Shown here: positions 772-37,020 of the stretch, piece by piece
Layout of the letters: each line of letters starts with the position of its first letter
Position numbering within the stretch: position 1 is the stretch's first letter
The notes under the pieces: generated by a model
The model's database searches: none
What the model was told of the DNA's origin: nothing
What the model saw: the letters and a program-made list of their open reading frames with translations, nothing else
IMG/VR virus record: IMGVR_UViG_3300046530_000052
Location: 62,001 to 126,000 of that record
Reading direction: 5' to 3' (one strand)
From: a virus
Length of the DNA: 64,000 nucleotides
Program-made: the position numbers and the translations under genes

Positions 772-2877
772 ATGGGTGTACCTGCTAAAGTAGACGGTGG
801 TGTAACCATCGCTGTATCACCCTTCATGGACAAGAATTACGAAACCAACCGAAATTTCCTGAAACCTTACCACTATCAAGCCGCTAACTTCCTGTCGATC
901 GTTTACAACTACGATTACGACCATTTGCTAGAACTGATGCGGGTAGTGTTCGTACCTGCTGAGAATGGCTTTAAAGAAGCTAAGTTCAAGATCTTCAAGA
1001 AGAACAAACACGGTGACCGGGTCGTAGAAGTTGTATACACCCGTGAGTTCTTCAATTACGTTAGACAAAAGAATTACCACTTATCTCCGTCGCTGGTAGC
1101 GTATACCCATACCGACGAAGAACAGTCCGTTAACTCGATCGCAACTGAAACCTTCATTGACTTCCGTCGTTTCTACAAAGGTAAGTTACACGAAGCCAAA
1201 GAAGTAGGTGATTCCGAAGCGGCCAAAGCGTTCCACGAGATCCAGAACGCCTTGAAGATCTTCAACAACGCCCAGTCGGGTGCAATGTCGTCTTCGGGTA
1301 CTCCGCTATTCAACCACTCTGGTCATACCACTCTGACCAGTATCTGCCGTTCCCTGACTTCGACTGCAAACTTGATTAACGAACGATTGATTACCGGTAA
1401 CCGGTTACTGTTGTCGTACAACAAGACCATTGAAGGCTTCTTGGCTCAGTTGCAGTTCTCTGACCATCACCTCATTGAGGAAGTGATTAAAGAACACGGT
1501 ATGAAGTACGCGACTGTTGACCAAGTCATGGACATGGTTCGTCGTTGCGCTAACTACTACTTCAGCAGCAAGTCTAAGCTGGCGAAAATTCATCGTTTCG
1601 TTGAGTTGTTGACTGGTCTGGAACGTACCATCCTGCTGTGCGTGATGGACATTCGTGGTCTGTACACGACTAACCCGAAAGTCATGACCCAGTTCTTTGC
1701 TGAGTGGTGTGCGGTTCCTGAGATTCCAGAAGGCGCTGAGCCTGACGACTTCCTCAAGCCAACCAACGGGGACTACAAGATCCTCTGCTTGACCAAGCTG
1801 GGCCGTGACCCAAGCAAGTTGGCAATGAACCACCTGAACCAGTACCACGTGAGTTTGGAAGCCAAGTGGTCCAAGTTCATCATGGCATTCTTCCGTTCTC
1901 GTATCCCACCGACTGGGATTTACGATGTAAAAGAGATCGTTCGTGAAAGCGTAATGACCTCCGACACTGACTCCGTGATCTACAGTGTTGACATGGTAAT
2001 TGAGAACTTCGCTAAGGACGAAGAAACCGAGATTCGTTTCAATGGCGTATTGACGTACTTCATCCGTTGCATTGCTGTAGACCAACACGCCAAGCTCAGC
2101 GTTAACATGAACGTGGCGAAGAAGTTCCAGCATCGTCTGCACATGAAGAATGAGTTCCTGTATACAGCCTACTTCACAACCAACATGTCTAAGCACTACT
2201 TCATGCTGGAGCTGATGTGTGAAGGGGTAATGTACGAAGCGGCTAAGCTGGAGAAGAAAGGGGTTCACTTGAAGGGCGTGAAGATCGCGGAACTGGTCCG
2301 TAACTTTACGGGTAAAGTGATGAGACAAGCACTTGATACGTTGTACAACAAAGAGAAGTTGTGCGCAGCGACCCTGCTTAAAGAAGTAGCTGACATTGAA
2401 CGAGCGTTGATCGACAATATCAGTAATGGCGGATGGTTGTGGTTGCGGAAGGATAACATCAAGCATGAATCGGTGTACGCCAATCCGGACTCGAGTATCT
2501 ACTACTACCACAAGATGTGGAAAAACCTACTGGAGCCTAAATACGGCGAAGCTCCACAACTGCCGTACAAAGCTTATAAAGTAAACCTGGCTCTCGATGG
2601 CAAGAAGAAGATGGCAACCTTCATTGACAGTATCGAGGATGAGAACTTTAAAGCGATGGCTCAGTCCTTCTTTAAAGATCGTGATGGTCTGACGTCTCTG
2701 TACGTCCCAACAGACATGATCGAAGGTATTGGGGGGATTCCTAAAGAGTTCTTGCCGTTTGTAGACATTCGGCAGGTTATCCAACAAAACTTGAAGTCGG
2801 TGTATGCAATCTTGGAATCGTTTGGGTTATTCATTCTGAACGCCAAGACCACTCGCTTGGTTTCTGACGAGCATTAA
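772..2877 (+). CDS. family B DNA polymerase, C-terminal (fingers/palm motif B and C) half
   Basis: This 701-residue protein carries the polymerase motifs of a family B DNA polymerase but no 3'-5' exonuclease. Residues about 131-170 have the basic fingers helix (FRRFYKGK) leading into motif B (LKIFNNAQSG, 161-170), and residues 397-401 (SDTDS) are motif C with two catalytic aspartates. Motif A and the exonuclease lie in a separate minus-strand gene at 35200-37020, so the enzyme appears to be assembled from two polypeptides split between motifs A and B. The spacer between motifs B and C, about 230 residues, is long for the family. The ATG at 772 follows a terminator, so the gene probably starts its own unit. 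Role: replication of phage DNA, presumably inside the phage nucleus. An alternative is a degenerate polymerase-like protein, but both aspartates of motif C are intact. Confidence 0.82.
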   Translation: MGVPAKVDGGVTIAVSPFMDKNYETNRNFLKPYHYQAANFLSIVYNYDYDHLLELMRVVFVPAENGFKEAKFKIFKKNKHGDRVVEVVYTREFFNYVRQKNYHLSPSLVAYTHTDEEQSVNSIATETFIDFRRFYKGKLHEAKEVGDSEAAKAFHEIQNALKIFNNAQSGAMSSSGTPLFNHSGHTTLTSICRSLTSTANLINERLITGNRLLLSYNKTIEGFLAQLQFSDHHLIEEVIKEHGMKYATVDQVMDMVRRCANYYFSSKSKLAKIHRFVELLTGLERTILLCVMDIRGLYTTNPKVMTQFFAEWCAVPEIPEGAEPDDFLKPTNGDYKILCLTKLGRDPSKLAMNHLNQYHVSLEAKWSKFIMAFFRSRIPPTGIYDVKEIVRESVMTSDTDSVIYSVDMVIENFAKDEETEIRFNGVLTYFIRCIAVDQHAKLSVNMNVAKKFQHRLHMKNEFLYTAYFTTNMSKHYFMLELMCEGVMYEAAKLEKKGVHLKGVKIAELVRNFTGKVMRQALDTLYNKEKLCAATLLKEVADIERALIDNISNGGWLWLRKDNIKHESVYANPDSSIYYYHKMWKNLLEPKYGEAPQLPYKAYKVNLALDGKKKMATFIDSIEDENFKAMAQSFFKDRDGLTSLYVPTDMIEGIGGIPKEFLPFVDIRQVIQQNLKSVYAILESFGLFILNAKTTRLVSDEH

Positions 2878-2880
2878 TTA

Positions 2881-3207
2881 ATGATAAACCGTAAGAAGTC
2901 TATCTGCAATAACGAGGAAACCGGAGTCCGTTTGTACTGGCACCGGGAGGCCATGGTTTACTTCGGGGCAACAGGTCGAGGGATAGAACATTTCATCCCC
3001 GGCCTTGAGAGTTATTACGAGGACCATATGACTGTGCTAGAGGATGTGGTTATTCAGACAGCCTTCGATTTCACTGAATACCAGATCTTCCCAACTTGCC
3101 CAAGTACAGTAGAGGGTATCCTTAAACTGCTTGAATCCACTAGCTTGGTTACTCCTACCCTCCGGGTTAGTCTCCCTTTCTTTAAAGCGGCCTACGGGAT
3201 GAAGTAA
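2881..3207 (+). CDS. hypothetical protein, 108 aa
   Basis: The gene starts 3 bp after the polymerase stop codon without a clear ribosome site, which suggests translational coupling to the polymerase gene. The product has mixed charge, with aromatic clusters (LYWHRE, FFKAAYG). No domain or membrane segment is recognised. A later ATG at 2953 is a possible alternative start. Function unknown. Confidence 0.6.
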   Translation: MINRKKSICNNEETGVRLYWHREAMVYFGATGRGIEHFIPGLESYYEDHMTVLEDVVIQTAFDFTEYQIFPTCPSTVEGILKLLESTSLVTPTLRVSLPFFKAAYGMK

Positions 3208-3247
3208 TAAATAGATTCAACAATCGAACATTAAGCAAAGGTGTGCC

Positions 3248-3865
3248 ATGGACGAAAGAAAGATTACACCGCACAGAACCTTGGGCATGATCCCTGGACT
3301 TAAGCCGCCTGAAGGGGCCGTTGAGCCGTCTGAGGTGTTCAGCAGACTCCCGACTACAAAAGAATTGCATACCAGTGTGAAGGGGTGGATTGAACAACGC
3401 TCCCAAGCATTCGATGGACTAAAGGAGACCATGGTTAGCACTGCCACTAGTGCTAACTCTCTCCAAAAATTCACCCTCACTGACCAAGAGTGTCAGGAGT
3501 TCGAAGAGGTGGGCAAACTATTGAATAGGTTCAATAAGCGCGAGCTTAAACTACTGAACACGGACCGGGATGTTGCTTATTACGCGGCCATCTATGTCCA
3601 TAAAGAAACTGGACTAAAGATCGGGATGAGTAATGATCAGCACGTCCTGCATCGTACCTGTGTTGAGGTACCCAAACCTAGTACTCTGAATGTATTGAAA
3701 CACGTTTGGGTGGAAGCGTGGTACAGCGGTGAAAGCTGCGAGTACTACGTTGATAATGCTGACGACCTCCGGCGACTCATGAGTATTTTGAATGAGACCG
3801 AAAGCACCGACGTCAGACTGGTTGCCTCCGAAGAATTTATCAGGACTGCCTGGCTTAAGTTATAG
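3248..3865 (+). CDS. hypothetical protein, 205 aa
   Basis: ATG at 3248 has AAGG about 8 bases upstream. The N-terminal 60 residues are Pro/Glu-rich and probably disordered. The rest looks globular, with an aromatic core (YYAAIYVHKETGLKIG and VWVEAWYSGE) reminiscent of a small beta-rich domain, but I cannot assign a family. It is the last gene of the polymerase cluster before an early-type promoter at 3877. Confidence 0.7.
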   Translation: MDERKITPHRTLGMIPGLKPPEGAVEPSEVFSRLPTTKELHTSVKGWIEQRSQAFDGLKETMVSTATSANSLQKFTLTDQECQEFEEVGKLLNRFNKRELKLLNTDRDVAYYAAIYVHKETGLKIGMSNDQHVLHRTCVEVPKPSTLNVLKHVWVEAWYSGESCEYYVDNADDLRRLMSILNETESTDVRLVASEEFIRTAWLKL

Positions 3866-3870
3866 GGAAC

Positions 3871-4310: not shown

Positions 4311-5413
4311 TTGCCCAAGTTTTCTTCGTTCAACTCGAATACCAGTTCCGCCAGCTCATAGAACCAACCTTTGAAGTAGGCTTCAGGAACCCGATCCAAG
4401 TTCTGGATACGCAAGTGGTGAGTGCGAGCAATCATGGTGTTGACGTCACCAGCCTTATACCCACCTTCATTGCAGTAGCTCAGGTAGATAGCCAACAGCT
4501 TCAGAATTGCCGGTTCCCAAATCCACATGGTCTGGGCGAAGATGGCATTGTTACCAGCCCTGACGTAGTTGAAGAAGGGTTGCGAGTAGATGCTGGGGAT
4601 GGCCTTCAGGAAGTGATCGAAGTTAACCAGACGACGATTCTTGTAGTAGCCTACCAAGTGACGGATCAGCTCGCCGTAGAACCGCTGGTCGTTAGCAAGG
4701 GTGAACCGTACCTTATCCGTCGTAATTAATTCTTCACAGGAGACACCATTTATAACGTGCTCATACAACACGTTGATGACACTCAGCTGGTTATGCATCA
4801 GCTGGGCATAGACGAAAGGATACTGAGCGATGTAGGCTCCAGGTCCTGTGTCGCGTTCCCGATTAAGTTTTTGGTAACCCCACCATCCTACTGCCAGCTC
4901 TACGAGATCCACACCCATGACTGCCAAGTCGCCAACAGACGACAAGAGGTAGTTAACCGGTTTGGTCACGTTGTGCTTGTAGCCGTTGGAGGTAATAGTG
5001 GAACACAGAGGGACCACAGGTCTCAACTGGTCCAAGTCCAAGGTCGCTTCATCGTAAACCTTGGTGTTGTCAATCAAGCACCAGTGCTCTCGAGTGTTGT
5101 TTCTGTAGAACCCGTCACTGATTGCTTGACCCACTCTGTTCGGAGAAGTAATCTTGAACTGAGTACATAATGAATATGCTCGTAGCCGAGTGTAATCAAC
5201 AACGTACTTCAAGCTCCAGTCTTTATCGATGCTGAGCTGTTGCAGAATCCCTACCAAGATGTGTTCGTTCTCAACGTTAAAAGGTTGATCAGCGGTCCAC
5301 TCAAGGAAGGCGTTTCTGTTGAAGTCTGTTTGTCGACGCATATTGTCGACTTCTGGGAATCGGAGTATTGGGTAGCGTGTTCTGGACGATGCAGGAAACG
5401 ATAAGGTTCTCAT
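4304..5413 (-). CDS. hypothetical protein, 369 aa
   Basis: A minus-strand gene placed back to back with the chimallin candidate. Its 369 residues contain several aromatic clusters (EHWCLID, VGWWGYQKL, MWIWEPAILKL) and a largely helical C-terminal half ending in EELNEENLGKK-type charged sequence. There is no signal peptide and no recognisable catalytic motif. An in-frame ATG at residue 25 is an alternative start because the ribosome site before 5413 is weak. The gene shares its upstream region with the chimallin transcription unit. Function unknown. Confidence 0.75.
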   Translation of the reverse strand: MRTLSFPASSRTRYPILRFPEVDNMRRQTDFNRNAFLEWTADQPFNVENEHILVGILQQLSIDKDWSLKYVVDYTRLRAYSLCTQFKITSPNRVGQAISDGFYRNNTREHWCLIDNTKVYDEATLDLDQLRPVVPLCSTITSNGYKHNVTKPVNYLLSSVGDLAVMGVDLVELAVGWWGYQKLNRERDTGPGAYIAQYPFVYAQLMHNQLSVINVLYEHVINGVSCEELITTDKVRFTLANDQRFYGELIRHLVGYYKNRRLVNFDHFLKAIPSIYSQPFFNYVRAGNNAIFAQTMWIWEPAILKLLAIYLSYCNEGGYKAGDVNTMIARTHHLRIQNLDRVPEAYFKGWFYELAELVFELNEENLGKK

Positions 5414-5638: not shown

Positions 5639-5682
5639 TGCTAACAGTCACCCTTTCTTAAGAAAAGATGGAGTTATACCTT

Positions 5683-7668
5683 ATGGCCGTTCAACAAAAC
5701 CGCAAAGGCGCGGGCAGCAATTCCTGGGATGGTAAAAATGGCAACGCCGCAGAGTTCTCCGCTCTGTCGGAACTCTTCCATACCCCTTCCATGTCGTCCG
5801 ACAACCGCCAGTTGCCGGAAGTTGATGAGGTGATCGAGATCCTCAAGAAGGGCTACACTGCGATGAGTGAATCCACCATCCAGCCTGCCCAACGCGCAAT
5901 CATCCCGACTGTCGACAAAGTGTCGCCTGTCATCAGCTCCACCCTGCCGGGTCTGGTAATGCACCGCCTGGTCGGCCAGAGCGTCTGGGTCATGCTGGTA
6001 CTGTTCTCCAACAAGGACAACGCCATCGCGACCGAAACCGTTCAAGTGCTTCAGCCTATGGGCATGCCGCACAAGACCTCGGTCCTGCTGACCCCGACCA
6101 ACTACTTCACCCACGAGCTGGTCGACAACCTGAAGAAGCACTTCAAGGGCGTCCTGGAAAACGAAGGCCTGAAAGGCGAAGTCGAGATCATCAACCTGAT
6201 GACCGAAGACTTGGAAATGCTGCAACACTCCCAGGCCGGTGAGCCGAAAGAGCGTCCACAGCGCATCGCCAACTACCTGAAAGGCGAGTGGGAAACCGCG
6301 GTGTTCTGCAAACTGTCCTCGGAGTATCCGAAGCACAAGCAGACTCTGCCTTCGCCGTTCAAAGATCCTGATGCACCGTACGGCAAAGACGGCTGGGCCG
6401 AAGCACGCGTTACCGCAATCGACGGCAAGGTCTCCCGCGCCGGCACGCTGATGCCGTCCAACATGGAACTGGTGATTTCGACCACCAACAACCCGAACAG
6501 CAGCAACAACAACCAGAACAACCCGAACTCGAAAGGGATCGTGCGCGCTCTGGCTACTGTTCAGTTGTCGGCCATCAGTTACCAAATGCACATGCAGAAC
6601 ATCGCGGCCATCTCGCAGGCCGGCGGTCAAGCCGATGCTATCCAGGCGTTCCTGGGCATCAACGGCGGCATGTACATGAACGGCTACCGTCCGCTGCACC
6701 CGGTCATCACTCTCGACCACGCCAACGCGGAAGAGATGATGAACTACAACAACGGCCTGTTCCCGCACTACTACGCGCTGTTCGCGCTGATGTGCACCAA
6801 CACCGACTACATCTTCACTGAACCACTGCGTCGCGCCAACGTCGGCTCCCGGGGCAACCTGAGCTCCTTCGAACCGCGCATCGAACAGCTGGTTGCTCAG
6901 GCGTTCACCGGTGTTCGTCCAGTAATGGACGACAAGACCATCCTGGACACCGAAGCAGTCAACAAGTGGATCCACCAGAACATCTCGCCGAACGCTCTGT
7001 TCCGCAGCAACGTGATCCTGGGCGGCCTGTCGTCCCCGGTGAACAAGCACCTGGAAGTTCTGTCGGATCCGGTCCTGGCCAACCGTCAGTCGGCGGTACA
7101 AACCATGATCGCGGTAATGGACGCAATCTCCAAAGGTCGTTTCTCGCAGATCGTTGCGGAAAACGTCAAGTCTGGCAAAGGCTGGAAGCCAGGCGATGTT
7201 GCGCTGCACCGCACGAAGATGATCGCGGTGAACGGTCTCGCGAAGAACCCACAAGGTCGCGAGCTGAACACCCTGGAAGTCGACGAAATGTACCTCGGTA
7301 CTCACAAAGGTAAGGCTGGGCTGCAACAGTCCATGAACTACCTGAGCGTGCTGTACGGCACCAACAACGAAGAAGTTCGTTCGCGTTGCCAGAAGCTGCG
7401 TATCGAAATGACCACCGGTCTGTTCGATGGTCACGTGCACATCAACAACTTCGGTTACTCCTGCGTCTGGGATCCGCATCTGATGGCTGTTATCGGTGCC
7501 GCTCTGTCGGAAATCGGTACGCTGAACGTTGCGAACACCTACAGCTCGATGCGTCCGAACAACATGGCGTTCATGCCAATGGCTGGTCTGCAAACCGTTA
7601 CGTCGGTCGGCAACAGCAACAACATGAACCTCCTGGGTGGTTTCGGTAACGGCGGGATCTGGGGCTAA
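5683..7668 (+). CDS. chmA: chimallin-like phage nucleus shell protein
   Basis: Probable main protein of the proteinaceous nucleus that encloses replicating phage DNA (homologue of phiKZ gp54 and 201phi2-1 gp105). The identification rests on gene order, size and expression signs: an exact early promoter motif upstream, 661 residues against about 610-630 in known chimallins, codon use far more biased to GC-ending codons than its neighbours, and a downstream beta'-N polymerase subunit, as in phiKZ (gp54-gp55). ATG at 5683 is chosen because GGAG lies 9 bases upstream; an in-frame ATG at 5668 has no good site. Visible features are an Asn/Ser-rich loop at about 268-283, a long mixed alpha/beta body, and a flexible C-terminal tail rich in Asn, Met and Gly that ends GGIWG. 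Chimallin C-terminal tails bind neighbouring protomers in known structures. No catalytic motif is seen. If this is not chimallin it must still be one of the most abundant early proteins. Confidence 0.75.
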   Translation: MAVQQNRKGAGSNSWDGKNGNAAEFSALSELFHTPSMSSDNRQLPEVDEVIEILKKGYTAMSESTIQPAQRAIIPTVDKVSPVISSTLPGLVMHRLVGQSVWVMLVLFSNKDNAIATETVQVLQPMGMPHKTSVLLTPTNYFTHELVDNLKKHFKGVLENEGLKGEVEIINLMTEDLEMLQHSQAGEPKERPQRIANYLKGEWETAVFCKLSSEYPKHKQTLPSPFKDPDAPYGKDGWAEARVTAIDGKVSRAGTLMPSNMELVISTTNNPNSSNNNQNNPNSKGIVRALATVQLSAISYQMHMQNIAAISQAGGQADAIQAFLGINGGMYMNGYRPLHPVITLDHANAEEMMNYNNGLFPHYYALFALMCTNTDYIFTEPLRRANVGSRGNLSSFEPRIEQLVAQAFTGVRPVMDDKTILDTEAVNKWIHQNISPNALFRSNVILGGLSSPVNKHLEVLSDPVLANRQSAVQTMIAVMDAISKGRFSQIVAENVKSGKGWKPGDVALHRTKMIAVNGLAKNPQGRELNTLEVDEMYLGTHKGKAGLQQSMNYLSVLYGTNNEEVRSRCQKLRIEMTTGLFDGHVHINNFGYSCVWDPHLMAVIGAALSEIGTLNVANTYSSMRPNNMAFMPMAGLQTVTSVGNSNNMNLLGGFGNGGIWG

Positions 7669-17243: not shown

Positions 17244-18758
17244 ATGAATGAACTCAATAAGCTGTACAAGGACATGCTGTTGTCCTGGAACACCCAAGTC
17301 AAAACTGATGGGCGTATCCTGCTGGACTTGGACGGCGATGAGTATCCCATCACCATCGACGGGATGAACCTCTACCTGCCGACTACTGACGTCCTCGACG
17401 AAGTAGCAGTGGGCAAGGTCTTCTTCCACCCAGCGTGTGAAGATATCACCTCGAAGGAAACCGAAGTCTTCAAGGTGTTGCGTAAGGTTACTTCCTTGCG
17501 TCTCCTGAGCGCCTTCCGTTCGGTCCCTCCGGTGTTGCTACCGCTTGCAGGTCCTAAGCCTAAGAGTTCGTGGAACCAACGCGTGCTGGACCTCCTGGAG
17601 CCTCTCAAGAGCGCTAAAGGCGCCGTGGTTAAAGAACTGACGGATCTGTTCGGTCGTCTGCATGTGGAAGTTGAAGAGAACGGTCTGGATAACCGCTTCG
17701 TCCACTTCAAGACCACCAAGTCCAGCGGTAAGTTGTCGAAGGCTACCGGCGAGAAGGTTTACTACACCACCAAGCCGGAGTTCCCGTTCTACAACGAACT
17801 GGTTCGCCGTCTGGCTCGTACCGAAGGCAAGACCGACAACCAGCAGATCGAAATCAACAACCACAGCGTGTCTCGTGCTGCGGTGAAGTTGGCTATCCAT
17901 CTGTTCCAGCACATCGTTCCAGCAGTGCTGTCGCCAGACGATCACGTCCACGAAGCGAATACTCCGATTGCAGCACGTATGGTTTCGTACCTGGGCTGTT
18001 ACGCAGATATCGCCGAGCAGATCAACAAGGTCCAAGGTACCTTCCGGGCAGAGTTTGCCAAGGCCGGTATCTACCCGATCAACTTGAGCTGGACCGAAGA
18101 TCTGGAAAACCTGCCTGAGTGGTATAAGCAGGTTCCGAAGATGGACTACAACACCCACAACACCCACGAAGAAACCGTCCATCAAGCAGCAGGACGTCAA
18201 GACTTCGCCGGGCTGATGTCGGTAAGTAGCAACATCAACCAAACGCCGGTCCAACAAACCCCGGGTAGCCAAGTGCAACAAGCGGGTGCAGGTATTGACC
18301 CAATGACTGGCTTCGTGATCACTCCACCACCTCAAGTGCTGGCGTCTGACCGTCTGACCCGTTACGAGTGCAACTTCGGTACTGGTCGTGTGACCCACTA
18401 CGGTGTTGACACTCTGACCAACCTGCCGGTCATGTACATCTGTACTCGTCAGGGTTCGTTCTTGGAGCGTCAAACTCCAAACCCTAATGCCGGCATGATG
18501 AACATGTTGGGTGGTTTCAACATGGGCATGGGTGGCATGGGTGGTATGAACGGCATGGGTGGTATGGGTAACATGAACCTGATGGCCCAACCACAACTGC
18601 TTCCGAATGGCATGATCCAATTGCCAAACGGTCAGATCATTCACCCGGCTCAGCTTCAACAGCAACAGCAACCTGTGATGCCAACCGGTTCTCCAAGCGT
18701 AACCAACTTGGATAACAACAGCGGTAGCGGCTTCAGCAATAGCCCAGCCTGGGGTTAA
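17244..18758 (+). CDS. gp70-like nucleus-region protein with Met/Gly-rich tail ending in WG
   Basis: 504 residues, 11 bp after the gp69-like gene and with AAGGTGA before the ATG, so in the same operon. Residues 1-290 look globular with basic patches (KTTKSSGKLSKATGEK). Residues about 300-350 are His/Gln/Pro-rich linker. The tail is a low-complexity tract of repeated Met-Gly-Gly (about 422-445), then Gln-rich sequence, and ends NSPAWG. That tail closely resembles the end of the chimallin candidate (MNLLGGF ... GIWG). By order it matches phiKZ gp70; an RNA-binding nucleus-associated protein (ChmC) has been described from this core set, and basic plus low-complexity sequence would fit, but I cannot confirm the link. 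Abundant codon type. Confidence 0.5.
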   Translation: MNELNKLYKDMLLSWNTQVKTDGRILLDLDGDEYPITIDGMNLYLPTTDVLDEVAVGKVFFHPACEDITSKETEVFKVLRKVTSLRLLSAFRSVPPVLLPLAGPKPKSSWNQRVLDLLEPLKSAKGAVVKELTDLFGRLHVEVEENGLDNRFVHFKTTKSSGKLSKATGEKVYYTTKPEFPFYNELVRRLARTEGKTDNQQIEINNHSVSRAAVKLAIHLFQHIVPAVLSPDDHVHEANTPIAARMVSYLGCYADIAEQINKVQGTFRAEFAKAGIYPINLSWTEDLENLPEWYKQVPKMDYNTHNTHEETVHQAAGRQDFAGLMSVSSNINQTPVQQTPGSQVQQAGAGIDPMTGFVITPPPQVLASDRLTRYECNFGTGRVTHYGVDTLTNLPVMYICTRQGSFLERQTPNPNAGMMNMLGGFNMGMGGMGGMNGMGGMGNMNLMAQPQLLPNGMIQLPNGQIIHPAQLQQQQQPVMPTGSPSVTNLDNNSGSGFSNSPAWG

Positions 18759-18769
18759 CAGGTAGCATT

Positions 18770-18809
18770 AATAACCAGCAGGGTCACCCCCTGCTGGTTA
18801 TTATTTTTT
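18770..18809 (+). terminator. strong intrinsic terminator
   Basis: Perfect 14-bp stem AATAACCAGCAGGG (18770-18783) / CCCTGCTGGTTATT (18789-18802), 5-base loop, then ATTTTTTG. It ends the gp68-69-70-like operon. Confidence 0.92.
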
Positions 18810-18826
18810 GTCTTAAAAAACTATTT

Positions 18827-19156
18827 TTATGCTCTGGCTGTATTATTACGTGCAATGCGTGTGTTTAATGCGCTTTCATTGATCCGATAGATCACCGTCA
18901 GCTTGGTGATGTCCTGATGAGGATCAGTGATTCCGTTGATGTACGCAGTCGTCCACCAGAGGTAAGAAGGAATACCCATTACCCGTAGAAAACGATAGAA
19001 GTCATTTTTGTAAGCCTGTTGGATAGCGGGAACTACCTGCTGGAAGACAGTCGCCTCCTTACGGATGAGTTCTAATTCAGACCTAACTAACGTTTTGTAC
19101 CGCTCCGTATAGAAGACATCTTTACCATTGCTGAAATCGTTATTGGGAAGTGGCAT
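18827..19156 (-). CDS. small protein, possibly baseplate gp53-like
   Basis: A lone minus-strand gene inside the plus-strand transcription core, 109 residues, with GAAGG upstream of the ATG at 19156. The middle has FYRFLRVMGIP followed by LWWTTAYINGITDPHQD (about 57-82). This Trp-Trp...Asn-Gly-Ile-x-Asp-Pro pattern resembles the T4 gp53 baseplate wedge family and LysM-linked baseplate relatives. If so, it is a virion gene isolated from the virion block; if not, it is an unknown early protein. It has no clear terminator of its own. Confidence 0.4.
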   Translation of the reverse strand: MPLPNNDFSNGKDVFYTERYKTLVRSELELIRKEATVFQQVVPAIQQAYKNDFYRFLRVMGIPSYLWWTTAYINGITDPHQDITKLTVIYRINESALNTRIARNNTARA

Positions 19157-19190
19157 AAGTAACCTTCAGGTGGAGTCAATAAATTTAGAA

Positions 19191-19201
19191 CCTATATTAT
19201 C
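19191..19201 (+). promoter_or_regulatory. early-type promoter 1 of the beta-C gene
   Basis: CCTATATTATC, preceded by aaatttagaa, differs from the TATATTAC motif at the last base only. It is 41-51 bp upstream of the ATG at 19242. Confidence 0.55.
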
Positions 19202-19209
19202 TTCCTGAA

Positions 19210-19220
19210 CCTATATACCC
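19210..19220 (+). promoter_or_regulatory. early-type promoter 2 of the beta-C gene
   Basis: CCTATATACCC, a second and weaker copy 19 bp after the first, also with a preceding GAA. A tandem pair occurs only here in the window. Confidence 0.4.
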
Positions 19221-19241
19221 TGATGTCGAAGAGGTCACTTG

Positions 19242-21482
19242 ATGAATGAGTTCGAATTTAACTTAACAGGTATAACGGATGCAGTCCGTTATAAATACGG
19301 GTGTGGTGAAAACCAACTTCATCCAGCGCTGATTGGTGTTAGCAGTAACTTAATTGTTTTCCCTATGTGTTCCTCTGCCGGTCGTATGTACATGGCCGGT
19401 AACATGATTCCCAAATCTGTTCCTACTGAAGGTGCAGGTGTTCGTTGGCTCATGAGTGGTAACGAACGTAAATACGGTAAGACTTCTCGTAAAGTAGAAG
19501 CGCCGAGCAACATGATCGTGGAAGAAGTGTTCAGTATCCAAAGTTTGGACCTGAGCAAGAACACAGACGCATGGCAGCCGACTCATATCGTTTATAAGAA
19601 CGACGAGAAGAACGCCTACGACCTGATGGATCTTCCGGCTTACCACACTCAGAACACCAGTGTGGGTTGGGAGTACGTTTACGACAAAGATGTACTGCGT
19701 AAACTGAAACCCGGTGCATGGTTACCGAAGGGTACGGTCTTTGCACAAAGTCCTCGTATTGACGAAGACGGCATCTGGCGATTCTCGATGCCGACTAAAG
19801 TGGCCGCCTATTCGGACCACCGGACGGAAGAGGACGGTATCGTCATCACCGAGTCGTTTGCTGAACGTTGCGCGTGTATGTTCAAACATATCCGCGGGTT
19901 CAACTGGAACGAGGATGAATACATTCCGTTGATGCTGTACGGGACTGAAGAGAATCCTTCTCCATTCCCTCAACCGGGTGAACCTATCCGTGAAGACGGT
20001 CTCGTGATGGGCTTCCGTAAACGTATTAAAGAGAATGCCTTGGTGAGTCTGACCAAGAAAGCTCTGCGTGAACCGGACCCAACTTACGACCACCTGCTTT
20101 ATGCTCCGCGTGACTGTGAAGTTACAGCGGTCCATGTTGAATCGGATCGTAGCAAGAACAAAGCCAACAACCGCAACACGACGTACATCCCGCAACGTCA
20201 TAACCAAATGCTGGATCGTTATGAGCGTAAGCGTAATGAGATGTGGGTGGCCGTGCTGAACTGGTACGAAGGCAAAGTTCGTATGAGTCGTAATGGCAAG
20301 ATCGCTATGACTCACCGCCTGAACACTTTTATCCGTGATGCTTACGGTAACTACACTGACCGTACTGGCCGTCCTAATCCACTGTTCCGTTCCATTAAGC
20401 GGGAGAAGTACAAGGATTGGAACGTTACCATTGAACTTAAGCAACGCATGACTGGTCGTGTGAAGTGGAAGTTGTCTGGTTTGAACGGTGACAAAGGTGT
20501 TGTGATCAGCATCATCCCCGATGACCATGCGCCGATGTATGCGGACGGTACTCGGGCAGAAGTGATCCTCAACAACATTCCGGCTTTCCGCCGGCAGATC
20601 TACGCGTTGTTGTTGGAGTTGAGTATCAACTTCTTGACCATGCACATCCATCGTGAAGTGCAGCACCTCCGTAAAGAAGGTGATTACCGTGGTGCCCACC
20701 GGATCCTGATGGAGTACTTCGAGCAGGGCTTCCCTGAGTTCGCTGAGATGTTCAAACTGGCGACCGAAGAAGAGTCCGATCTGATCGAGTACATTGATAA
20801 CGTGAGCAAGAAGAACATCTCTATTCACATTATCAGTAACTCCAAGCTGTTCGGGGTTAACTTGATCAACAAGCTGCGGGAGCGTTATAAGTACCAGCCG
20901 CAGAAAGCAACCTGGGTCAACTCGTTGGGCGAGAAGCAAGAGACTGCTAACCCGATCATGATCAGTATCCAAGACTTGATCCTTCTGGACAAGTTCGGTA
21001 GTGACATGAGTGCTCAGTGCATGCCCAAGTCTAACTTGTTCGGCATGCCAGCGAAGATGAGCGACAGTGACCGTTACAGCTTGCCGATGAACGATAAGGG
21101 TAACAAGAACACTGCTGAGACTGAAGGTCGTTGGGTAACCAGCCAGTCAGGTGGTCAAGAGGTTGTGAAGTTGTTTTCTTTGGCATACTCACCAGAGAAC
21201 CGCATCAGCGCAGTTCGTCGTTGGGTGCGCGCTAACGATACTCACAACATTCCTCAGATCATTAAGCCTGAAGAGTACGTGAATAACCGTGCGTTGAACA
21301 TGTCCGTCAGCATGATGAAAGACTCTGGGTTGGCTCTGCGTAATGAGTTGCCTAGTGACATCGTCAGCAACGAACACTTGCAAGGTTACAACGAAACCCG
21401 TTTGGGTGGATTCTTGGCTGAACTTAACGAGAAAGAAGCGGCACTCAAAAGCCAACAACAGGGTGGGCAAGTATCCTCATGA
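19242..21482 (+). CDS. non-virion RNA polymerase beta subunit, C-terminal part
   Basis: 746 residues matching the C-terminal half of bacterial RpoB, equivalent to phiKZ gp71-73. The key block is at about 412-450: LNGDKGVV (bacterial GRHGNKGVV region) followed by PDDHAPMYADGT and EVILNN (DMPYLPDGTPVDIVLN region). Lysines in this block contact the nascent RNA and the active centre in known polymerases. Upstream, the EDGIVITESFAE segment at about 205-216 corresponds to the bacterial EDSI/V region. The N-terminal half of beta is not in this window. ATG at 19242 has AGAGG at good spacing; TTG 19239 is rejected. It overlaps beta'-C by 4 bp, so the two are made together, as in phiKZ. Confidence 0.9.
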   Translation: MNEFEFNLTGITDAVRYKYGCGENQLHPALIGVSSNLIVFPMCSSAGRMYMAGNMIPKSVPTEGAGVRWLMSGNERKYGKTSRKVEAPSNMIVEEVFSIQSLDLSKNTDAWQPTHIVYKNDEKNAYDLMDLPAYHTQNTSVGWEYVYDKDVLRKLKPGAWLPKGTVFAQSPRIDEDGIWRFSMPTKVAAYSDHRTEEDGIVITESFAERCACMFKHIRGFNWNEDEYIPLMLYGTEENPSPFPQPGEPIREDGLVMGFRKRIKENALVSLTKKALREPDPTYDHLLYAPRDCEVTAVHVESDRSKNKANNRNTTYIPQRHNQMLDRYERKRNEMWVAVLNWYEGKVRMSRNGKIAMTHRLNTFIRDAYGNYTDRTGRPNPLFRSIKREKYKDWNVTIELKQRMTGRVKWKLSGLNGDKGVVISIIPDDHAPMYADGTRAEVILNNIPAFRRQIYALLLELSINFLTMHIHREVQHLRKEGDYRGAHRILMEYFEQGFPEFAEMFKLATEEESDLIEYIDNVSKKNISIHIISNSKLFGVNLINKLRERYKYQPQKATWVNSLGEKQETANPIMISIQDLILLDKFGSDMSAQCMPKSNLFGMPAKMSDSDRYSLPMNDKGNKNTAETEGRWVTSQSGGQEVVKLFSLAYSPENRISAVRRWVRANDTHNIPQIIKPEEYVNNRALNMSVSMMKDSGLALRNELPSDIVSNEHLQGYNETRLGGFLAELNEKEAALKSQQQGGQVSS

Positions 21483-23494
21483 TGCAGTTTAGTCTTCGAG
21501 AGTTTGCGAACATTCCAGAAGAGATGATGTTGCGCTGGCGAGGTTATCGATGTCCGGTAACCGTAGTCGACGACGAAGGTGAGTCTGTTGAGTCTGACAC
21601 CTATGTGTTGATGTTGACGTGGTTGGGGTTGATTATCCATCGACACTACAACCACATCCCTTATTCGATTAAGGAGTTGATCCCCTCGAATAAGGTGGCT
21701 GGTAATACAGACAAGATGATCACCTACGACGACGACGTCCAGACCGTCCCCATTAACTACATGCTCGCCAAGCTGCTCCCAACTATTAAAAGCTTGGCAG
21801 AAATTGATGACATCAAGCGGATGATCCACATCTGGCAGAACAAGCTCCATAACTTATCCGTAGTGATGGGTGAAGGTTCTTCGCTGTCAGCCTCTGCTGA
21901 GTCCGTGGGTGATCTCATGGCCGATGATGGGGTAATGGAGATCCGTGATCAGATCCTCGAGAAGAAGATCTCGATCGATGAAGGTGAAGATAAGTTCAAC
22001 CACCACATCAAGTCGGCAGAAACCTTGGACCGTAACGTCATGGCCATGCTGGCTCGGACTGGCGGTGTAAGTGTGAACCAGGCGTATCAACTGTCCGTGA
22101 TGCGGGGTGGGGTGTTCAGCTTGAACAACACCATTCACCCCAATGCGGTCTCTGTACCGTACGCTCACGGCATTACTAACTTGGCGGATTCGCTGGGTGA
22201 GAAGAATGCGTCTGGTAAAGCTCTAACCAACAACGGTAAAGCGTTGAAGGACTCGGAGCTGTTTCACCGTAAGACCCACATCCTGACTGCTGTTGTGCGT
22301 GGCATGAGCTTCGGTTGGGATTGTGGTACTCGGATCGCTGTTCCTGTCAAGATTGCCAGCATGAACGTTGCCATGGGGCTGCGCGGCAAGTGGCAACAAA
22401 TGCCTGCCGGCAATCTCCAGCTTATTGACAACGATAATGTCTGGGACATCAAGGTTGGGGAAACGGTCTACATTCGTTCGGTTGCGTTCTGTAATAGTCG
22501 CGACGCTGGTGTTCCGTGTGGAACATGTTACGGGATGATGGCGACGTCAATCCCGTTTAACCAGATGATGGACAAGATTGCTAACGTGGGCATGTGGTCA
22601 GCAACCTCTATCTGTAACCCGATGGGTCAGGGGATGCTTTCTACTAAACACTTTATCCGAAATGCAATTACACGGCAGTTCGTCCCGCACAAGCGCGACA
22701 CGAATATCATTTCCAGTAATGGCGATGAGATCTTCTTGAATCCTGAGGTCATTGAACCTGGCTGTGACATGGTCTTGGGAGCAGATATTGTTAACGTCCT
22801 TTCGGATATCCGAAGCTTGGGTGACCTTAACGCCGTTAGTCTGGAGAAACTGCCGTATTTCGCTGAAGTGACTTTCCGTTATGCAGTTGAAGATATCATG
22901 ATGGGCGGTAAAACGATTCAGCAACACGCTGCCCATACATCGATCTCCTCTCGTAAAGCGCGGTTCTCGTTGGAATTCCTCCGTTATGTGTTGGACTACG
23001 GTTGGGAGACTCTCGGGAAGAAGCATGTCAAGATCGACCTGAGCCATTGGAATGTAATGGAGCCTGTGTTTAGTCTGCCATTCATCCGGGAAGACTTGGA
23101 TGCTCACCGTGCTCGTGTTGAGAGCTTCATCACCTTTAGCAAGCGTAACTCTACGTGGAAAAATCAGGTAGTCACTCCGAAGATCTTTGGTGAGGTGCTA
23201 ACTGAGTACTGGACACTCATTGCTCAGGAAATTAAAGGTATTAACGTCGTACACCCAGAGTTGATGCTGTACAGCTGTCTGACAGCGACTCCAGGGGGTA
23301 TTGACGCATCGATCCCAATGGGCGATGTGCCTAAGTACTTCTCCAGTTTCGAAGAGGCTGTAATCGGTCGAGGTATTGGCCACCTGATGATCTACGAGCG
23401 ACAGCAGAACGTACTGAACAAGATGAAAACTTTCCGGATGGTCAACCGTCAAGGTAGTCCGTTGGAGGCTTTCTTCGCACTGGGTGTTGGTTAA
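21479..23494 (+). CDS. non-virion RNA polymerase beta' subunit, C-terminal part
   Basis: 671 residues equivalent to the C-terminal part of bacterial beta' (phiKZ gp74). The bridge-helix/trigger-loop region is recognisable as NASGKALTNNGKALKDSELF (about 242-261). A second zinc site follows: C282, C338, C347 and C350, close to the C-x(n)-C-x6-C-x2-C of beta' (CGTCYG). Next is NVGMWSATSICNPMGQGMLS, which replaces the bacterial GEAVGxIAAQSIGEPGTQLT block. Together with beta'-N (7756) this rebuilds a complete beta'. It starts inside the stop of beta-C. Modest codon bias fits a catalytic rather than structural protein. Confidence 0.9.
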   Translation: MMQFSLREFANIPEEMMLRWRGYRCPVTVVDDEGESVESDTYVLMLTWLGLIIHRHYNHIPYSIKELIPSNKVAGNTDKMITYDDDVQTVPINYMLAKLLPTIKSLAEIDDIKRMIHIWQNKLHNLSVVMGEGSSLSASAESVGDLMADDGVMEIRDQILEKKISIDEGEDKFNHHIKSAETLDRNVMAMLARTGGVSVNQAYQLSVMRGGVFSLNNTIHPNAVSVPYAHGITNLADSLGEKNASGKALTNNGKALKDSELFHRKTHILTAVVRGMSFGWDCGTRIAVPVKIASMNVAMGLRGKWQQMPAGNLQLIDNDNVWDIKVGETVYIRSVAFCNSRDAGVPCGTCYGMMATSIPFNQMMDKIANVGMWSATSICNPMGQGMLSTKHFIRNAITRQFVPHKRDTNIISSNGDEIFLNPEVIEPGCDMVLGADIVNVLSDIRSLGDLNAVSLEKLPYFAEVTFRYAVEDIMMGGKTIQQHAAHTSISSRKARFSLEFLRYVLDYGWETLGKKHVKIDLSHWNVMEPVFSLPFIREDLDAHRARVESFITFSKRNSTWKNQVVTPKIFGEVLTEYWTLIAQEIKGINVVHPELMLYSCLTATPGGIDASIPMGDVPKYFSSFEEAVIGRGIGHLMIYERQQNVLNKMKTFRMVNRQGSPLEAFFALGVG

Positions 23495-33078: not shown

Positions 33079-34089
33079 ATGAGTCAGGAAAACGCAATGC
33101 AAGACGATATCGTTATCGACGAGAACGAAGAGTTCGTCGCACCTGAATCCAGCCACATCGAGCTGGTCTTCCAAGCCCTCGGTGACACTGTCAATGCCGT
33201 TGCTGGTACCGAAGGTCTGACCACCGCTCAACTGTACTTCCACGGCGTTCTGAACGCGTCTGGCCAGCTGAGCTACACCGACTCGGTCTCCGGTGCTGAA
33301 GGCTTCTTCGCCAACGTGAAAGAAGGTGCTTCCAAAGCCATCGCTTACATCAAGAAGATGGTCAAGGAAATCTGGGGCTTCTTCTTCAAGAAGCAAGGTC
33401 CGGAAGAAGCCAAGGCTGTTAAGGAAGCTGTTGCTGGTACCGCTGCCGACCTCGCCAACGTCGAGAAAGTCAAATCCGGCCTGAAGAGCGCCGCTGGTTC
33501 CGACTCGAAAGAGCTGGTTGAACACATCAGTAAGGCGAGCACCATCGCTGAACTGAACACCGTGTCGAAAGACGTGGCGAAGAAGAACACCAAGGCTCAG
33601 CAAGGTCTGGTCGTCAAGATCAACCAACTGGTTGAATCGCTGGAAGCCGAAGTCAAGCTGGCTGAAGAAGTCGAAACCGAAGCCAAGAAGTCCGGCGAAG
33701 CAGGTTACACCGCTTGGGCATCGGGCGTGAAAGGCGGCGTGTCGGGTACTCAGTCCCTGATCACCACCCTGAAAGGTATTCGCGATCTGGCTGACCTGAA
33801 GGCTGCTGAAGACACCCTCGGTGCACTGAAGTCTCACGTCGAGATCATCAGCCGCGCTCTGGAAGCCTCCGGCGGTACCGAATCCCGCGTTCAGGGCATG
33901 ATCGACACCCTGTCCACTCTGGATGGCAACAACTCCGCCAGCGACGAACAGAAGAAGCAAGGCGACGACAACCTGAAAGCTCTACAGCTTTTCGTTAAGT
34001 CGGCTGCTCGCTACTCCGCTCTCCTGAAGCGTACCCTTTCCCATATGAAATCTGTCAACACTGCCACCGGCAAAGTGTTCGGCGTTTAA
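33079..34089 (+). CDS. inner-body/ejected-type virion protein 1, 336 aa
   Basis: Member of a paralogous family in this window. The N-terminal propeptide ends in Gly-x-Glu sites: AGTE at 42-45 and SGAE at 71-74. After the second comes GFFANVKEG and an amphipathic helix with a terminal aromatic cluster (KKMVKEIWGFFFKK, about 92-105), then long Ala/Lys/Glu-rich helices. In phiKZ-type phages the prohead protease cuts after small-x-Glu in the inner-body proteins, which are packed with the DNA and partly ejected. 10 bp upstream of its closest relative at 34100, so a tandem duplicate. Very biased codons, so many copies per virion. Confidence 0.8.
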   Translation: MSQENAMQDDIVIDENEEFVAPESSHIELVFQALGDTVNAVAGTEGLTTAQLYFHGVLNASGQLSYTDSVSGAEGFFANVKEGASKAIAYIKKMVKEIWGFFFKKQGPEEAKAVKEAVAGTAADLANVEKVKSGLKSAAGSDSKELVEHISKASTIAELNTVSKDVAKKNTKAQQGLVVKINQLVESLEAEVKLAEEVETEAKKSGEAGYTAWASGVKGGVSGTQSLITTLKGIRDLADLKAAEDTLGALKSHVEIISRALEASGGTESRVQGMIDTLSTLDGNNSASDEQKKQGDDNLKALQLFVKSAARYSALLKRTLSHMKSVNTATGKVFGV

Positions 34090-34099
34090 GGAGTCCTCG

Positions 34100-35143
34100 A
34101 TGGACGAAGTAATGAGCGAAGACGAACTGAGCATGGAAGTGGCTATCCCTGCTCCGGAACACATCGAAACCATCCTCGACGGCGTCAGCGACTCCCTCGA
34201 CCAGGTGGCGGGTACCGAAAGCTTGACCAACGCACAGGTTTACCTGGGTTCGGTTCTGGCTGCCAACGGTTACATCCGCAAGAACCAGGTTGGTCAGGAA
34301 GGCTTCTTGGCGAAAGCCGGTGAAGGTTTCAAAGCCGCTGTTGCCTACGTCAAGAAGATGTTCACCAACCTCTGGGACTTCTTCTTCAAGCGTGACGCAC
34401 CGAAGCTGGTAGCTGAGGCCAAGGAAGAGGTCAAGGCTGCTGAAGACGCCCTCAAGGTCATCGAGTCCGGCGGTAGCAACGAGAAAGAAACCACTGAAGC
34501 GCTGACCAACATGCGCAAAGTGATTCTGGCTCTGAGCCACGAACCTGACACCAACAAGTCTGCTCTGGATCAGATCCTGAAAGAAGCGGACGAAGCGATG
34601 AAGGGCGATCAAGCCAAGAAGAAAGCTGCCGTTCTCATGATCGGTCGTGAACTTCCGAAGCTGAACAAGCGCTCGACTACCGCCATGAAGAAACGTGTCG
34701 ACGACATGGTTCGTGTCCTGGTTGCGACCGAGAAGGCTGTCGACGCTGTTATCGACAAAGGCGAAGGTGTCAACGCTGCTTCGATCGAAAGGGTCTACGG
34801 CGCCAAGCTGAAGTCTGAGAAAGGTGAAATCGCTGGTGTCCTTGCCAAGTTCCAAAAGGCCAGTAGCGAAACCACTCCGGCTAACCTGAAGGACTGCTAC
34901 ACGTACACCTCGCAATCCATTGAAGCGGCAAGCCGTGCGCACACATCGCTGAAAGAGGGCGAGACCTCCATCAAGGCTGAAATCGCCAAGCTGGAAGCCG
35001 GTGAGGAGTCTACTCTCAAGAGTAGTGTTCAAGACCTCAAACGTCTGCTGAGTTCGGTTACCTCTTTGGCCCAAGTGACCAAAGAACTGCTGGGCTCCAG
35101 CCGTCAGTTGCTGAAAACCGGTAACAAGGCTTTCGGCTACTAA
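34100..35143 (+). CDS. inner-body/ejected-type virion protein 2, 347 aa
   Basis: Tandem paralogue of the preceding gene: HIETILDGVSDSLDQVAGTE (to E40) matches HIELVFQALGDTVNAVAGTE of the neighbour, the second site is VGQE (E67), and the helix is KKMFTNLWDFFFKR. The rest is helical with Lys/Glu repeats and ends GNKAFGY. GGAG precedes the ATG. The two proteins differ mainly in the C-terminal helices. Expected to be processed at E67 and packed in the head. Confidence 0.8.
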   Translation: MDEVMSEDELSMEVAIPAPEHIETILDGVSDSLDQVAGTESLTNAQVYLGSVLAANGYIRKNQVGQEGFLAKAGEGFKAAVAYVKKMFTNLWDFFFKRDAPKLVAEAKEEVKAAEDALKVIESGGSNEKETTEALTNMRKVILALSHEPDTNKSALDQILKEADEAMKGDQAKKKAAVLMIGRELPKLNKRSTTAMKKRVDDMVRVLVATEKAVDAVIDKGEGVNAASIERVYGAKLKSEKGEIAGVLAKFQKASSETTPANLKDCYTYTSQSIEAASRAHTSLKEGETSIKAEIAKLEAGEESTLKSSVQDLKRLLSSVTSLAQVTKELLGSSRQLLKTGNKAFGY

Positions 35144-35155
35144 GTTGCAACCTGT

Positions 35156-35190
35156 ACCCCTACCCCGAGCCTTTCGGCCGGGGTAGGGGT
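35156..35190. terminator. long GC-rich hairpin between convergent genes
   Basis: ACCCCTACCCC (35156-35166) pairs with GGGGTAGGGGT (35180-35190) with a further short GCC/GGC stem inside. No T-tract on either strand. Confidence 0.6.
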
Positions 35191-35199
35191 TATGGCTGC

Positions 35200-37020
35200 T
35201 TATGCTGCTTCGTTGAAGAACTCTTGGTTGGTGAACTTCTTGCGAGGTTTCTTACCGGCTTTGATATCTACCAGCAATTCTTCCTTGCCTTGTTCTTTCA
35301 TGATGCGTTCAAACACTTCTTGAATCTTGTCAGCTTCTGGGAACCCGAACAACGAGTTACACAGACCAATAGCGTTAGCCTCAGCACTACTTGCAAAGTT
35401 AACACCGATCTCACGGAACTTGTTAGCATCCGCCCCTTGAATAACCACAGTCTCAACTTGAGTCGTACGGTTACTCACGTTACCTGCCAAACCACCGTGA
35501 GGATAAGCGCCCTCAACGTCGATGTCATCGTTCATCCGACGACCCTGACTGATAACGTCCAGAAGCCCCTCAAAGATCGCATAACCAACGCTAGCGTTCT
35601 TCTCAGTGTCGAGGAGGGCAATCCAGTTCTTAAGCGTAGGAAGCTGTTCTGTGAAGCTTGTGTCACGTTTGCTCGGAGTACTGCCCCACACAAAGCCATT
35701 ATCCCGAGCTACGAAGCTAATCGTGTCAGAAATAACCTTAGGCTGAGATGAGTAGTTAAAGAACTCAGAGTACTTGAGCAACATCCCCAACGACAGTGTC
35801 AAGTCATTTGTCTTATCGTTGATGTATTCAATAACCCAGTTGTCGCAGATGCAATAACTGGAGTACAGATACGGATACTTCTTCTGCATGTAACGGTGCC
35901 ACTGAGGAGAGCCCGGCAACAAGTGAGCGCCTTCTTCGGTGTACAGCTTACCACTCACCCCTACAGCTTTGGCACAACCTTCCAGTGACGTATCAGGCTG
36001 CTTGCCATCCACAGGCTGACGTTTGATACAGAAGAAGGACATGTAGTCGACCCACTTCCACTTCGCCATGCAGCGAACCGTTGGCCACTTCTCTTGAGGG
36101 TCCAGCGGGCTACTGCTACCGTCTTCCTTAATCTTGTGAGTCCGACCCAAGTCCAGTTTGTAGAAACGGAACTCCTGAGGAATAGATGGATCGCAGTAAG
36201 CATCATCGAGGTTATAACCCTCGTTAGCCAACGCACGTTCCATTGCCTTCATGTCGTATTCAGCGTTCCAGCTAGTGATCCAGTCAGGACCCCACTCGTG
36301 GAACTTGTCCAGCATCGCTTTAGCTACTTGACCCGGAGTGTCAAAGAGCTCATAAACGATTTCAGCAACCTTACGTTCGATCTTGTGTTTCGCTAAATAC
36401 TTGTCTTCGGATTCTCGTAACCGTGCAATGATTTCTTCATCACTAGGCTGTCGTCCATCCGCTTCCTTGTAGAACCCACGAACCCCTGCGAAGTACACCC
36501 GATGCTTCATGGTCAAAGCGGCCATGATCATAGGGCGGGTTGCGTCATCCTCCCACTCCATGTCCGCTTCAACGTCGAACGATGCTACAGAGTAAGGTTC
36601 CTTCTCTTGGTATTCCCCGTACTTCTTAAAGAACGCATATTTAACGTGAACAGGTGGGGTCTGGTCCAAACCAAATACAAACTGGTTGTTCGACACATCA
36701 CGAATGTTTGCTTTGTAATCCAAAGCCCCGTAGATCTGTTTCTTAACCATCGATGCGATCTGGCAACGAGGAAGTCTGTACTCCCGAACCGCACTCTGTT
36801 CGATGTAATCTTTATGTTGCTCGAACTTCCGGCGCTCTGGTTTTACGATCCACACCGGCTGCTTGTAATTCTTGATTGCAATGAAAGAATCGCTACGAGT
36901 CTGATCTTCGTGAATGTTGGTAATCTTGACACAGGTCAGGTCGTCTCTAGACGCCTTACTTACTGAGTAAGTGGCGTTTTTACAAACCTTGGCGATGATT
37001 GGTGAAGTGTTCTCGGTCAT
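35200..37020 (-). CDS. family B DNA polymerase, N-terminal half (3'-5' exonuclease and motif A)
   Basis: 606 residues with all three exonuclease motifs: Exo I SFDVEAD (D149, E151), Exo II SWNAEYD (N252, D256) and Exo III YCICD (Y389, D393). Polymerase motif A is DVEGAYP at 501-507 (usual DxxSLYP). The protein stops about 100 residues later without motif B or C, which are in the plus-strand gene at 772-2877. The two genes therefore complement each other exactly, with the break between motifs A and B. AGGAA precedes the ATG at 37020. It sits as a single minus-strand gene inside virion genes, so it must be expressed separately from its other half. Function: proofreading half of the replicative polymerase. 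Confidence 0.87.
   Translation of the reverse strand: MTENTSPIIAKVCKNATYSVSKASRDDLTCVKITNIHEDQTRSDSFIAIKNYKQPVWIVKPERRKFEQHKDYIEQSAVREYRLPRCQIASMVKKQIYGALDYKANIRDVSNNQFVFGLDQTPPVHVKYAFFKKYGEYQEKEPYSVASFDVEADMEWEDDATRPMIMAALTMKHRVYFAGVRGFYKEADGRQPSDEEIIARLRESEDKYLAKHKIERKVAEIVYELFDTPGQVAKAMLDKFHEWGPDWITSWNAEYDMKAMERALANEGYNLDDAYCDPSIPQEFRFYKLDLGRTHKIKEDGSSSPLDPQEKWPTVRCMAKWKWVDYMSFFCIKRQPVDGKQPDTSLEGCAKAVGVSGKLYTEEGAHLLPGSPQWHRYMQKKYPYLYSSYCICDNWVIEYINDKTNDLTLSLGMLLKYSEFFNYSSQPKVISDTISFVARDNGFVWGSTPSKRDTSFTEQLPTLKNWIALLDTEKNASVGYAIFEGLLDVISQGRRMNDDIDVEGAYPHGGLAGNVSNRTTQVETVVIQGADANKFREIGVNFASSAEANAIGLCNSLFGFPEADKIQEVFERIMKEQGKEELLVDIKAGKKPRKKFTNQEFFNEAA

What the first reader, a model, noticed from the sequence alone, without database searches (positions are those of the whole stretch)
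772..37020. Replicative family B DNA polymerase split into two genes about 32 kb apart and on opposite strands
The minus gene 35200-37020 has Exo I, II, III and motif A (D501) and then ends. The plus gene 772-2877 begins without these and has motif B (161-170) and motif C (SDTDS, 397-401). The two halves complement exactly with the break between motifs A and B, inside the catalytic palm, so the two chains must join to form one active site. Divergent polymerases are known in phiKZ-type phages; this particular geometry, opposite strands and a 230-residue B-to-C spacer are worth detailed study.
Basis: partly seen in the sequence, partly recalled or inferred. Interest (0 to 1): 0.72.

Follow-up and report, generated by a model that had tools for sequence, protein, structure and literature searches.

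The report
Known split polymerase of nucleus-forming phages
A giant bacteriophage appears to build its DNA-copying enzyme from two separately encoded proteins that must come together to make one active site; this is real, but it is a standard, already described feature of the phiKZ-like phages.

Summary
The minus gene (606 aa) carries Exo I, II, III and motif A; the plus gene (701 aa) carries motifs B and C, and relatives conserve these residues. The predicted N model matches RB69 polymerase residues 1-386 (Z 27.6); its motif A segment aligns by profile with T4 gp43 up to residue 430. The C model aligns loosely with RB69 451-890. The break lies between motifs A and B, so the catalytic aspartates sit on two chains. 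Both models lose confidence around their palm motifs. No intact PolB, PolA or PolIII-alpha was found in the record or a longer relative.

It is not new. The genes are orthologues of phage EL gp21 and gp51, PHROGs names both DNA polymerase, and papers describe a split family B DNA polymerase in these phages, first in OBP. Opposite strands about 30-50 kb apart is the usual layout (46 of 50 records compared), and the long B-to-C insert is published. One published account treats the exonuclease as standalone; here that protein holds motif A. Physical pairing of the two chains is inferred, not shown.

The parts
772..2877 (+). C-terminal half of the split PolB (701 aa): motif B, long helical insert, motif C, rest of palm, thumb
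   Evidence: PF20286 divDNApol E 4.1e-239, PF00136 E 5.2e-7, phrog_2927 E 3.8e-225; fold aligns loosely with RB69 451-890, Z 8.7, rmsd 9.0; orthologue of EL gp21, 64%
1249..1281 (+). motif B, ALKIFNNAQSG (K162, N166)
   Evidence: 36 of 36 rows
1282..1959 (+). long mostly helical insert between motifs B and C
   Evidence: 231-254 residues between N166 and D398 in 36 of 36 rows against 56 in T4 gp43; block means of pLDDT 76-96 over residues 211-380, mostly helix, but below 50 at 171-196
1960..1974 (+). motif C, SDTDS (D398, D400)
   Evidence: 36 of 36 rows
35200..37020 (-). N-terminal half of the split PolB (606 aa): N-terminal domain, 3'-5' exonuclease, palm segment with motif A
   Evidence: phrog_3011 E 1e-180; model residues 9-451 match RB69 1-386, Z 27.6, rmsd 3.7, 360 aligned; orthologue of EL gp51, 64%
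36568..36576 (-). Exo I, DVE (D149, E151)
   Evidence: 43 of 43 rows
36253..36267 (-). Exo II, NAEYD (N252, D256)
   Evidence: 43 of 43 rows
35842..35856 (-). Exo III, YCICD (Y389, D393)
   Evidence: 43 of 43 rows
35500..35520 (-). motif A, DVEGAYP (D501)
   Evidence: D in 39 of 43 rows, gap in the other 4; aligned with fdltslyps of T4 gp43
236..664 (+). small SH3-fold protein gene just upstream of the C half, as in the published neighbourhood
   Evidence: PF20287 SH3DP, 'SH3 fold domain associated with phage DNA polymerases', E 3.5e-25; neighbourhood described in PMC7824862 (passages)

Best explanation
The two genes encode the two chains of the replicative family B DNA polymerase of a phage-EL-like member of the nucleus-forming (phiKZ-like) phages. 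The minus-strand protein supplies the N-terminal domain, the proofreading exonuclease and the first palm segment with the catalytic aspartate of motif A. The plus-strand protein supplies the fingers with motif B, a long helical insert, motif C with its two aspartates, and the thumb. They are expected to bind each other so that the palm sheet and the two-metal active site are completed in trans. Shown: the motifs, their conservation, the RB69-like N fold, the weaker RB69-like C alignment, the complementary coverage, and the lack of another replicative polymerase in the records searched. Inferred: the physical complex and its activity.
For: Families: P0001 PF20286 and phrog_2927, P0002 phrog_3011, both PHROGs annotated DNA polymerase. 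Spread: tblastn finds the C half in 290 and the N half in 272 phage records; in PBS1 and MarsHill the N half is found with phrog_3011. In PBS1 the Pfam PolB model PF00136 is itself cut: positions 46-91 in the N gene and 103-211 in the C gene; in MarsHill 59-88 (18.3 bits, under the cut-off) and 92-202. The N profile aligns with T4 gp43 106-430 including motif A, Prob 97.4. Folds: N 9-451 to RB69 1-386, Z 27.6, rmsd 3.7; C 97-687 to RB69 451-890, Z 8.7, rmsd 9.0, and C 496-687 to T4 725-886, Z 9.0, rmsd 3.4; the 50 listed rows, of 774 chains aligned, are all PolB. pLDDT is below 50 at N 488-530 (motif A) and C 381-407 (motif C), 167-196 and 456-504. One PF00136 match, the C half, in the own record and in the 234.5 kb relative; no PolA or PolIII-alpha in 3 records. 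No unsplit form: 0 of 75 C-half loci with an upstream stop and 0 of 62 N-half loci ending at a stop hold an ORF over 794 codons. Published as split (PMC5694885; PMC7598289).
Against: No complex was predicted or measured. The C model is only moderate (mean pLDDT 73.2), Foldseek gave no hit at E 0.001 or below, and the tool warns that best Z of 7-8 is common without a true match. C against T4 gp43 by profile was not significant (Prob 1.5). The motif A segment itself was not confidently modelled, so its place rests on sequence alignment. The window's own N half has no Pfam match up to E 1. Low confidence around the motifs could also come from small alignments (43 and 36 rows). PMC7824862 treats the exonuclease as a standalone protein that might associate.
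Confidence: 0.93

Rival explanations
1. Two independent enzymes: a polymerase (plus gene) complete in itself and a standalone proofreading exonuclease (minus gene) that only visits it.
For: PMC7824862 describes the group 1 polymerase as lacking a fused exonuclease, with such a protein encoded elsewhere that might associate (passages).
Against: The exonuclease protein carries a conserved motif A (D501 in 39 of 43 rows, gap in 4) that aligns with the T4 motif A. The plus protein's long alignments with RB69 mostly begin near residue 450, after motif A (one row, 3rma_D, begins at 384), and its motif C region is not ordered alone.
Confidence: 0.05
2. One polymerase chain is made by protein or RNA trans-splicing of the two gene products, as in split-intein polymerases.
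For: A putative split intein is reported in the PolB genes of jumbo phage MIJ3 (PMC6892783, passages).
Against: No intein family among Pfam hits of either protein up to E 1 or NCBIfam hits up to 0.1. In 38 of the 39 rows that reach motif A the protein runs 69-108 residues further, to its own stop, and that stretch begins as T4-like palm. RNA trans-splicing was not tested.
Confidence: 0.01
3. The pair is a relic and another polymerase copies the genome.
For: The two proteins are very divergent from ordinary PolB: no PDB sequence match for either single protein that makes sense.
Against: The catalytic residues are conserved; one place covers at least 80% of the query in 265 of 272 N records and 272 of 290 C records; no other PolB, PolA or PolIII-alpha was found. 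The own record is a fragment.
Confidence: 0.01

Closest known systems
Split family B DNA polymerase of phiKZ-like phages (SPN3US gp18/gp44, phage OBP, phage EL gp21/gp51)
   Same: Same two protein families and same convergent layout in EL and SPN3US; EL proteins 64% identical over nearly the full length.
   Different: Nothing of note; two phiKZ-clade phages, PBS1 and MarsHill have the two genes on the same strand.
T4/RB69 gp43 DNA polymerase
   Same: Exo I-III and motifs A, B, C in the same order over the two chains; N fold matches RB69 1-386.
   Different: T4 gp43 is one chain with 56 residues between motifs B and C; here two chains and 231 residues.
Split PolB of Methanothermobacter thermautotrophicus
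   Same: PolB encoded by two polypeptides (PMC7776575, passage).
   Different: Archaeal; where its break lies relative to motifs A-C was not checked here. Probably an independent fission (inference).
Split minimal DNA polymerase III alpha of group 2.2 jumbo phages
   Same: Polymerase core split into two proteins from distant genes (PMC7824862, passage).
   Different: A different polymerase family, with a pol-beta fold by that paper.

Membership tests
Family B DNA polymerase | Exo I, II, III motifs with DxE, Nx3D, Yx3D (motif forms recalled) | tested here: met
   P0002 D149/E151, N252/D256, Y389/D393; 43 of 43 rows
Family B DNA polymerase | motif A (D..SLYP-like) | tested here: met
   D501-VEGAYP on P0002; aligned with T4 motif A
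Family B DNA polymerase | motif B (Kx3N..) and motif C (DTD) | tested here: met
   P0001 K162/N166 and D398/D400; 36 of 36 rows
Family B DNA polymerase | PolB fold, N-terminal and exonuclease domains | tested here: met
   Foldseek 1ih7 E 3.5e-14; Z 27.6, rmsd 3.7 over 360 residues
Family B DNA polymerase | PolB fold, palm, fingers and thumb | tested here: inconclusive
   C model Z up to 9.0 with T4/RB69, 50 of 50 listed rows PolB, but long alignments have rmsd 8-9 and Foldseek gave nothing at E 0.001 or below
phiKZ-like split PolB | C half matches the divergent PolB family | tested here: met
   PF20286 795.9 bits, cut-off 25.7
phiKZ-like split PolB | N half present as a separate gene | tested here: met
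   phrog_3011 E 1e-180; separate gene 32 kb away
phiKZ-like split PolB | genome of a nucleus-forming phage (shell protein, multisubunit RNAP) | tested here: met
   window 5668-7668 nuclear shell protein E 1.8e-101; 3 of 10 scanned window proteins are RNA polymerase beta subunits
phiKZ-like split PolB | the two chains form one active enzyme | not testable with these tools
   needs co-expression and primer extension
Split-intein polymerase | intein halves at the N-gene end and C-gene start | tested here: not met
   no intein family in Pfam hits to E 1 or NCBIfam hits to 0.1

The most novel reading that the evidence does not exclude
The exonuclease chain is not an accessory: it supplies a catalytic aspartate, so the enzyme is an obligate heterodimer that could be assembled only inside the phage nucleus after both chains are imported, making the split a control point against premature DNA synthesis.
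Probability: 0.12. Interest if true: 0.55.

Novelty: already known. Interest (0 to 1): 0.25.

Why it matters
It confirms, with residue positions, that the polymerase active site of these phages is divided between two proteins. That bears on annotation and testing: expressing the Pfam 'divergent DNA polymerase' alone should give an inactive protein, and the protein described in one paper as a standalone exonuclease should be essential for synthesis and should enter the phage nucleus with it.

Tried and rejected
PDB by sequence with single proteins: one irrelevant hit each. With profiles the N half found RB69 polymerase (E 7.4e-10); the C half gave five hits, 1s5j 'DNA polymerase I' at E 0.0016 over the motif B region, but also chemotaxis proteins (0.0072, 0.0085) next to polymerase zeta (0.0085, 0.0088). 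Profile comparison of the C half with T4 gp43 was not significant. PF03104 (PolB exonuclease) rang in 1 of 5 records, PBS1 only, and not in the relatives of this phage, so it does not recognise this N half. Looked for an unsplit relative in the viral contigs fetched: none (3 of 78 C loci and 2 of 64 N loci run off the contig); the phage records were not inspected one by one. I considered that Staphylococcus and Bacillus phages lack the N half: they make up 17 C records but are not named in the counts for N. In the two tested, PBS1 and MarsHill, it is present but diverged. Cornelissen 2012 was sought by a DOI that I recalled, and the Kazlauskas papers of 2011 and 2016 by DOI or PMC number; none is held, so whether they place the break relative to motifs A and B is unknown to me. 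Ten paper searches were answered; of papers I saw listings, abstracts and passages, never a whole text.

Rows dropped: L058 (359 aa) from the N set before alignment; sequences 90% or more alike removed, 64 to 43 (N) and 79 to 36 (C), each with the window's protein. The C scan kept the best 80 of 215 relatives as 78 loci. In one search GenBank/RefSeq duplicates were entered once.

Full report
Observation. In alignments of 43 N-half and 36 C-half sequences, each including the window's own and under 90% alike, the Exo residues are identical in 43 of 43, D501 in 39 of 43 with a gap in 4, and K162, N166, D398, D400 in 36 of 36. The minus protein continues 105 residues past motif A, so the break is not at motif A but between it and motif B.

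What it is. The C half matches Pfam PF20286, 'Divergent Family B DNA polymerase' (E 4.1e-239), and also the general PolB family over motif B. The N half has no Pfam family but matches phrog_3011, annotated DNA polymerase. Both are orthologues of phage EL genes gp21 and gp51, 64% identical. The window is bases 62001-126000 of a 126,005-base virus record; a 234.5 kb IMG/VR record matches both proteins at 100%. Of ten window proteins scanned, one is the nuclear shell protein and three are RNA polymerase beta subunits, in an order that, compared by eye, is like that of EL. So this is an EL-like, nucleus-forming phage.

Where the break is. In phage PBS1 the Pfam PolB model is cut between two genes, positions 46-91 in the N gene and 103-211 in the C gene; in MarsHill 59-88 (below the cut-off) and 92-202. 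The N profile aligns with T4 gp43 residues 106-430, ending just after motif A. The predicted N model matches RB69 1-386 with Z 27.6; the stretch with motif A was not confidently modelled. The C model aligns with RB69 451-890 loosely (Z 8.7, rmsd 9.0 over 334 residues), its C-terminal part with T4 725-886 better (Z 9.0, rmsd 3.4 over 146); the 50 listed chains of 774 aligned are all PolB. Against this, Foldseek alone had no hit at E 0.001 or below, and Z of 7-8 is common without true kinship by the tool's own note. Taken together the halves are complementary, with the break near RB69 430-450 and the catalytic aspartates on different chains. In both models pLDDT is below 50 around the palm motifs: N 488-530 with motif A, C 381-407 with motif C. 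A palm missing its partner would show this, but small alignments could contribute.

Is there another polymerase? One PF00136 match, the C half itself, in the own record and in the 234.5 kb relative. No PF03104 match in that relative. No PolA or PolIII-alpha in three records. The own record is a fragment.

Is the split universal? Among the viral-contig loci fetched, 75 of 78 C-half loci have a stop upstream and 62 of 64 N-half loci end at a stop; the longest stop-to-stop ORFs are 794 and 775 codons, so none is a fused form.

Geometry. I compared 50 phage genomes for which both positions were on hand: 47 accessions listed in both the C and N tables, PhiPA3 from two records of the same genome, and PBS1 and MarsHill. 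Many are close relatives, and they are a part of the 290 and 272 records found. In 46 of 50 the genes are on opposite strands, the N match 29.5-52.7 kb (median 35.0) downstream of the C match; in 4 of 50 they share a strand (two phiKZ-clade phages, PBS1, MarsHill). Counted by eye, all 15 IMG/VR contigs that hold both also have opposite strands; some of these are the same phages as among the 50. The geometry is ordinary.

Insert. The B-to-C spacer is 231-254 residues in 36 of 36 rows. [quoted passage not shown]

Literature. [quoted passage not shown] PMC7824862 (passages) gives YP_009153312.1 as its example, which is the C-half gene of SPN3US, and says such polymerases lack a fused exonuclease, which is encoded elsewhere. 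My data add that this separate exonuclease protein carries motif A. Whether earlier papers that I could not read state this is unknown to me.

Mechanism. Most likely an obligate two-chain PolB: the N chain proofreads and gives one metal-binding aspartate; the C chain gives fingers, the other aspartates and thumb. Binding and activity are inferred.

Noticed in passing
L175:3091-3396 (PhiPA3, HQ630627, minus strand) and L077:3904-4325: A group I intron (Rfam RF00028, 71.7 and 51.4 bits) interrupts the N-half gene. In PhiPA3 it sits at motif A: the annotated gene gp085 ends at VADLD, and IVSTYPN resumes about 50 bases after the Rfam match, so the deposited protein seems truncated. In L077 it lies upstream of motif A, which is intact at 4491.
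   Followed up: partly
L064:2501-3934 and L092:2501-3877: Two more N-half ORFs stop before motif A without an Rfam intron hit at the gathering threshold; cause unknown.
   Followed up: no
L176:24709-27816 (phage EL gp39) versus window 21479-23494: EL RNA polymerase gene gp39 is 365 aa longer than the window's ORF at the same place and holds a LAGLIDADG, intein-like stretch around 376-549; the window's protein has no Pfam hit.
   Followed up: partly
EL gp037 (41045-42187) against window 18758-19239: EL carries an annotated transposase gene at a place where the window shows no ORF of that size.
   Followed up: no
L015:5062-7182 (Staphylococcus phage MarsHill): The C-half gene is annotated as two exons, and the nearby RNA polymerase beta-prime gene as three with a homing endonuclease inside.
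   Followed up: no
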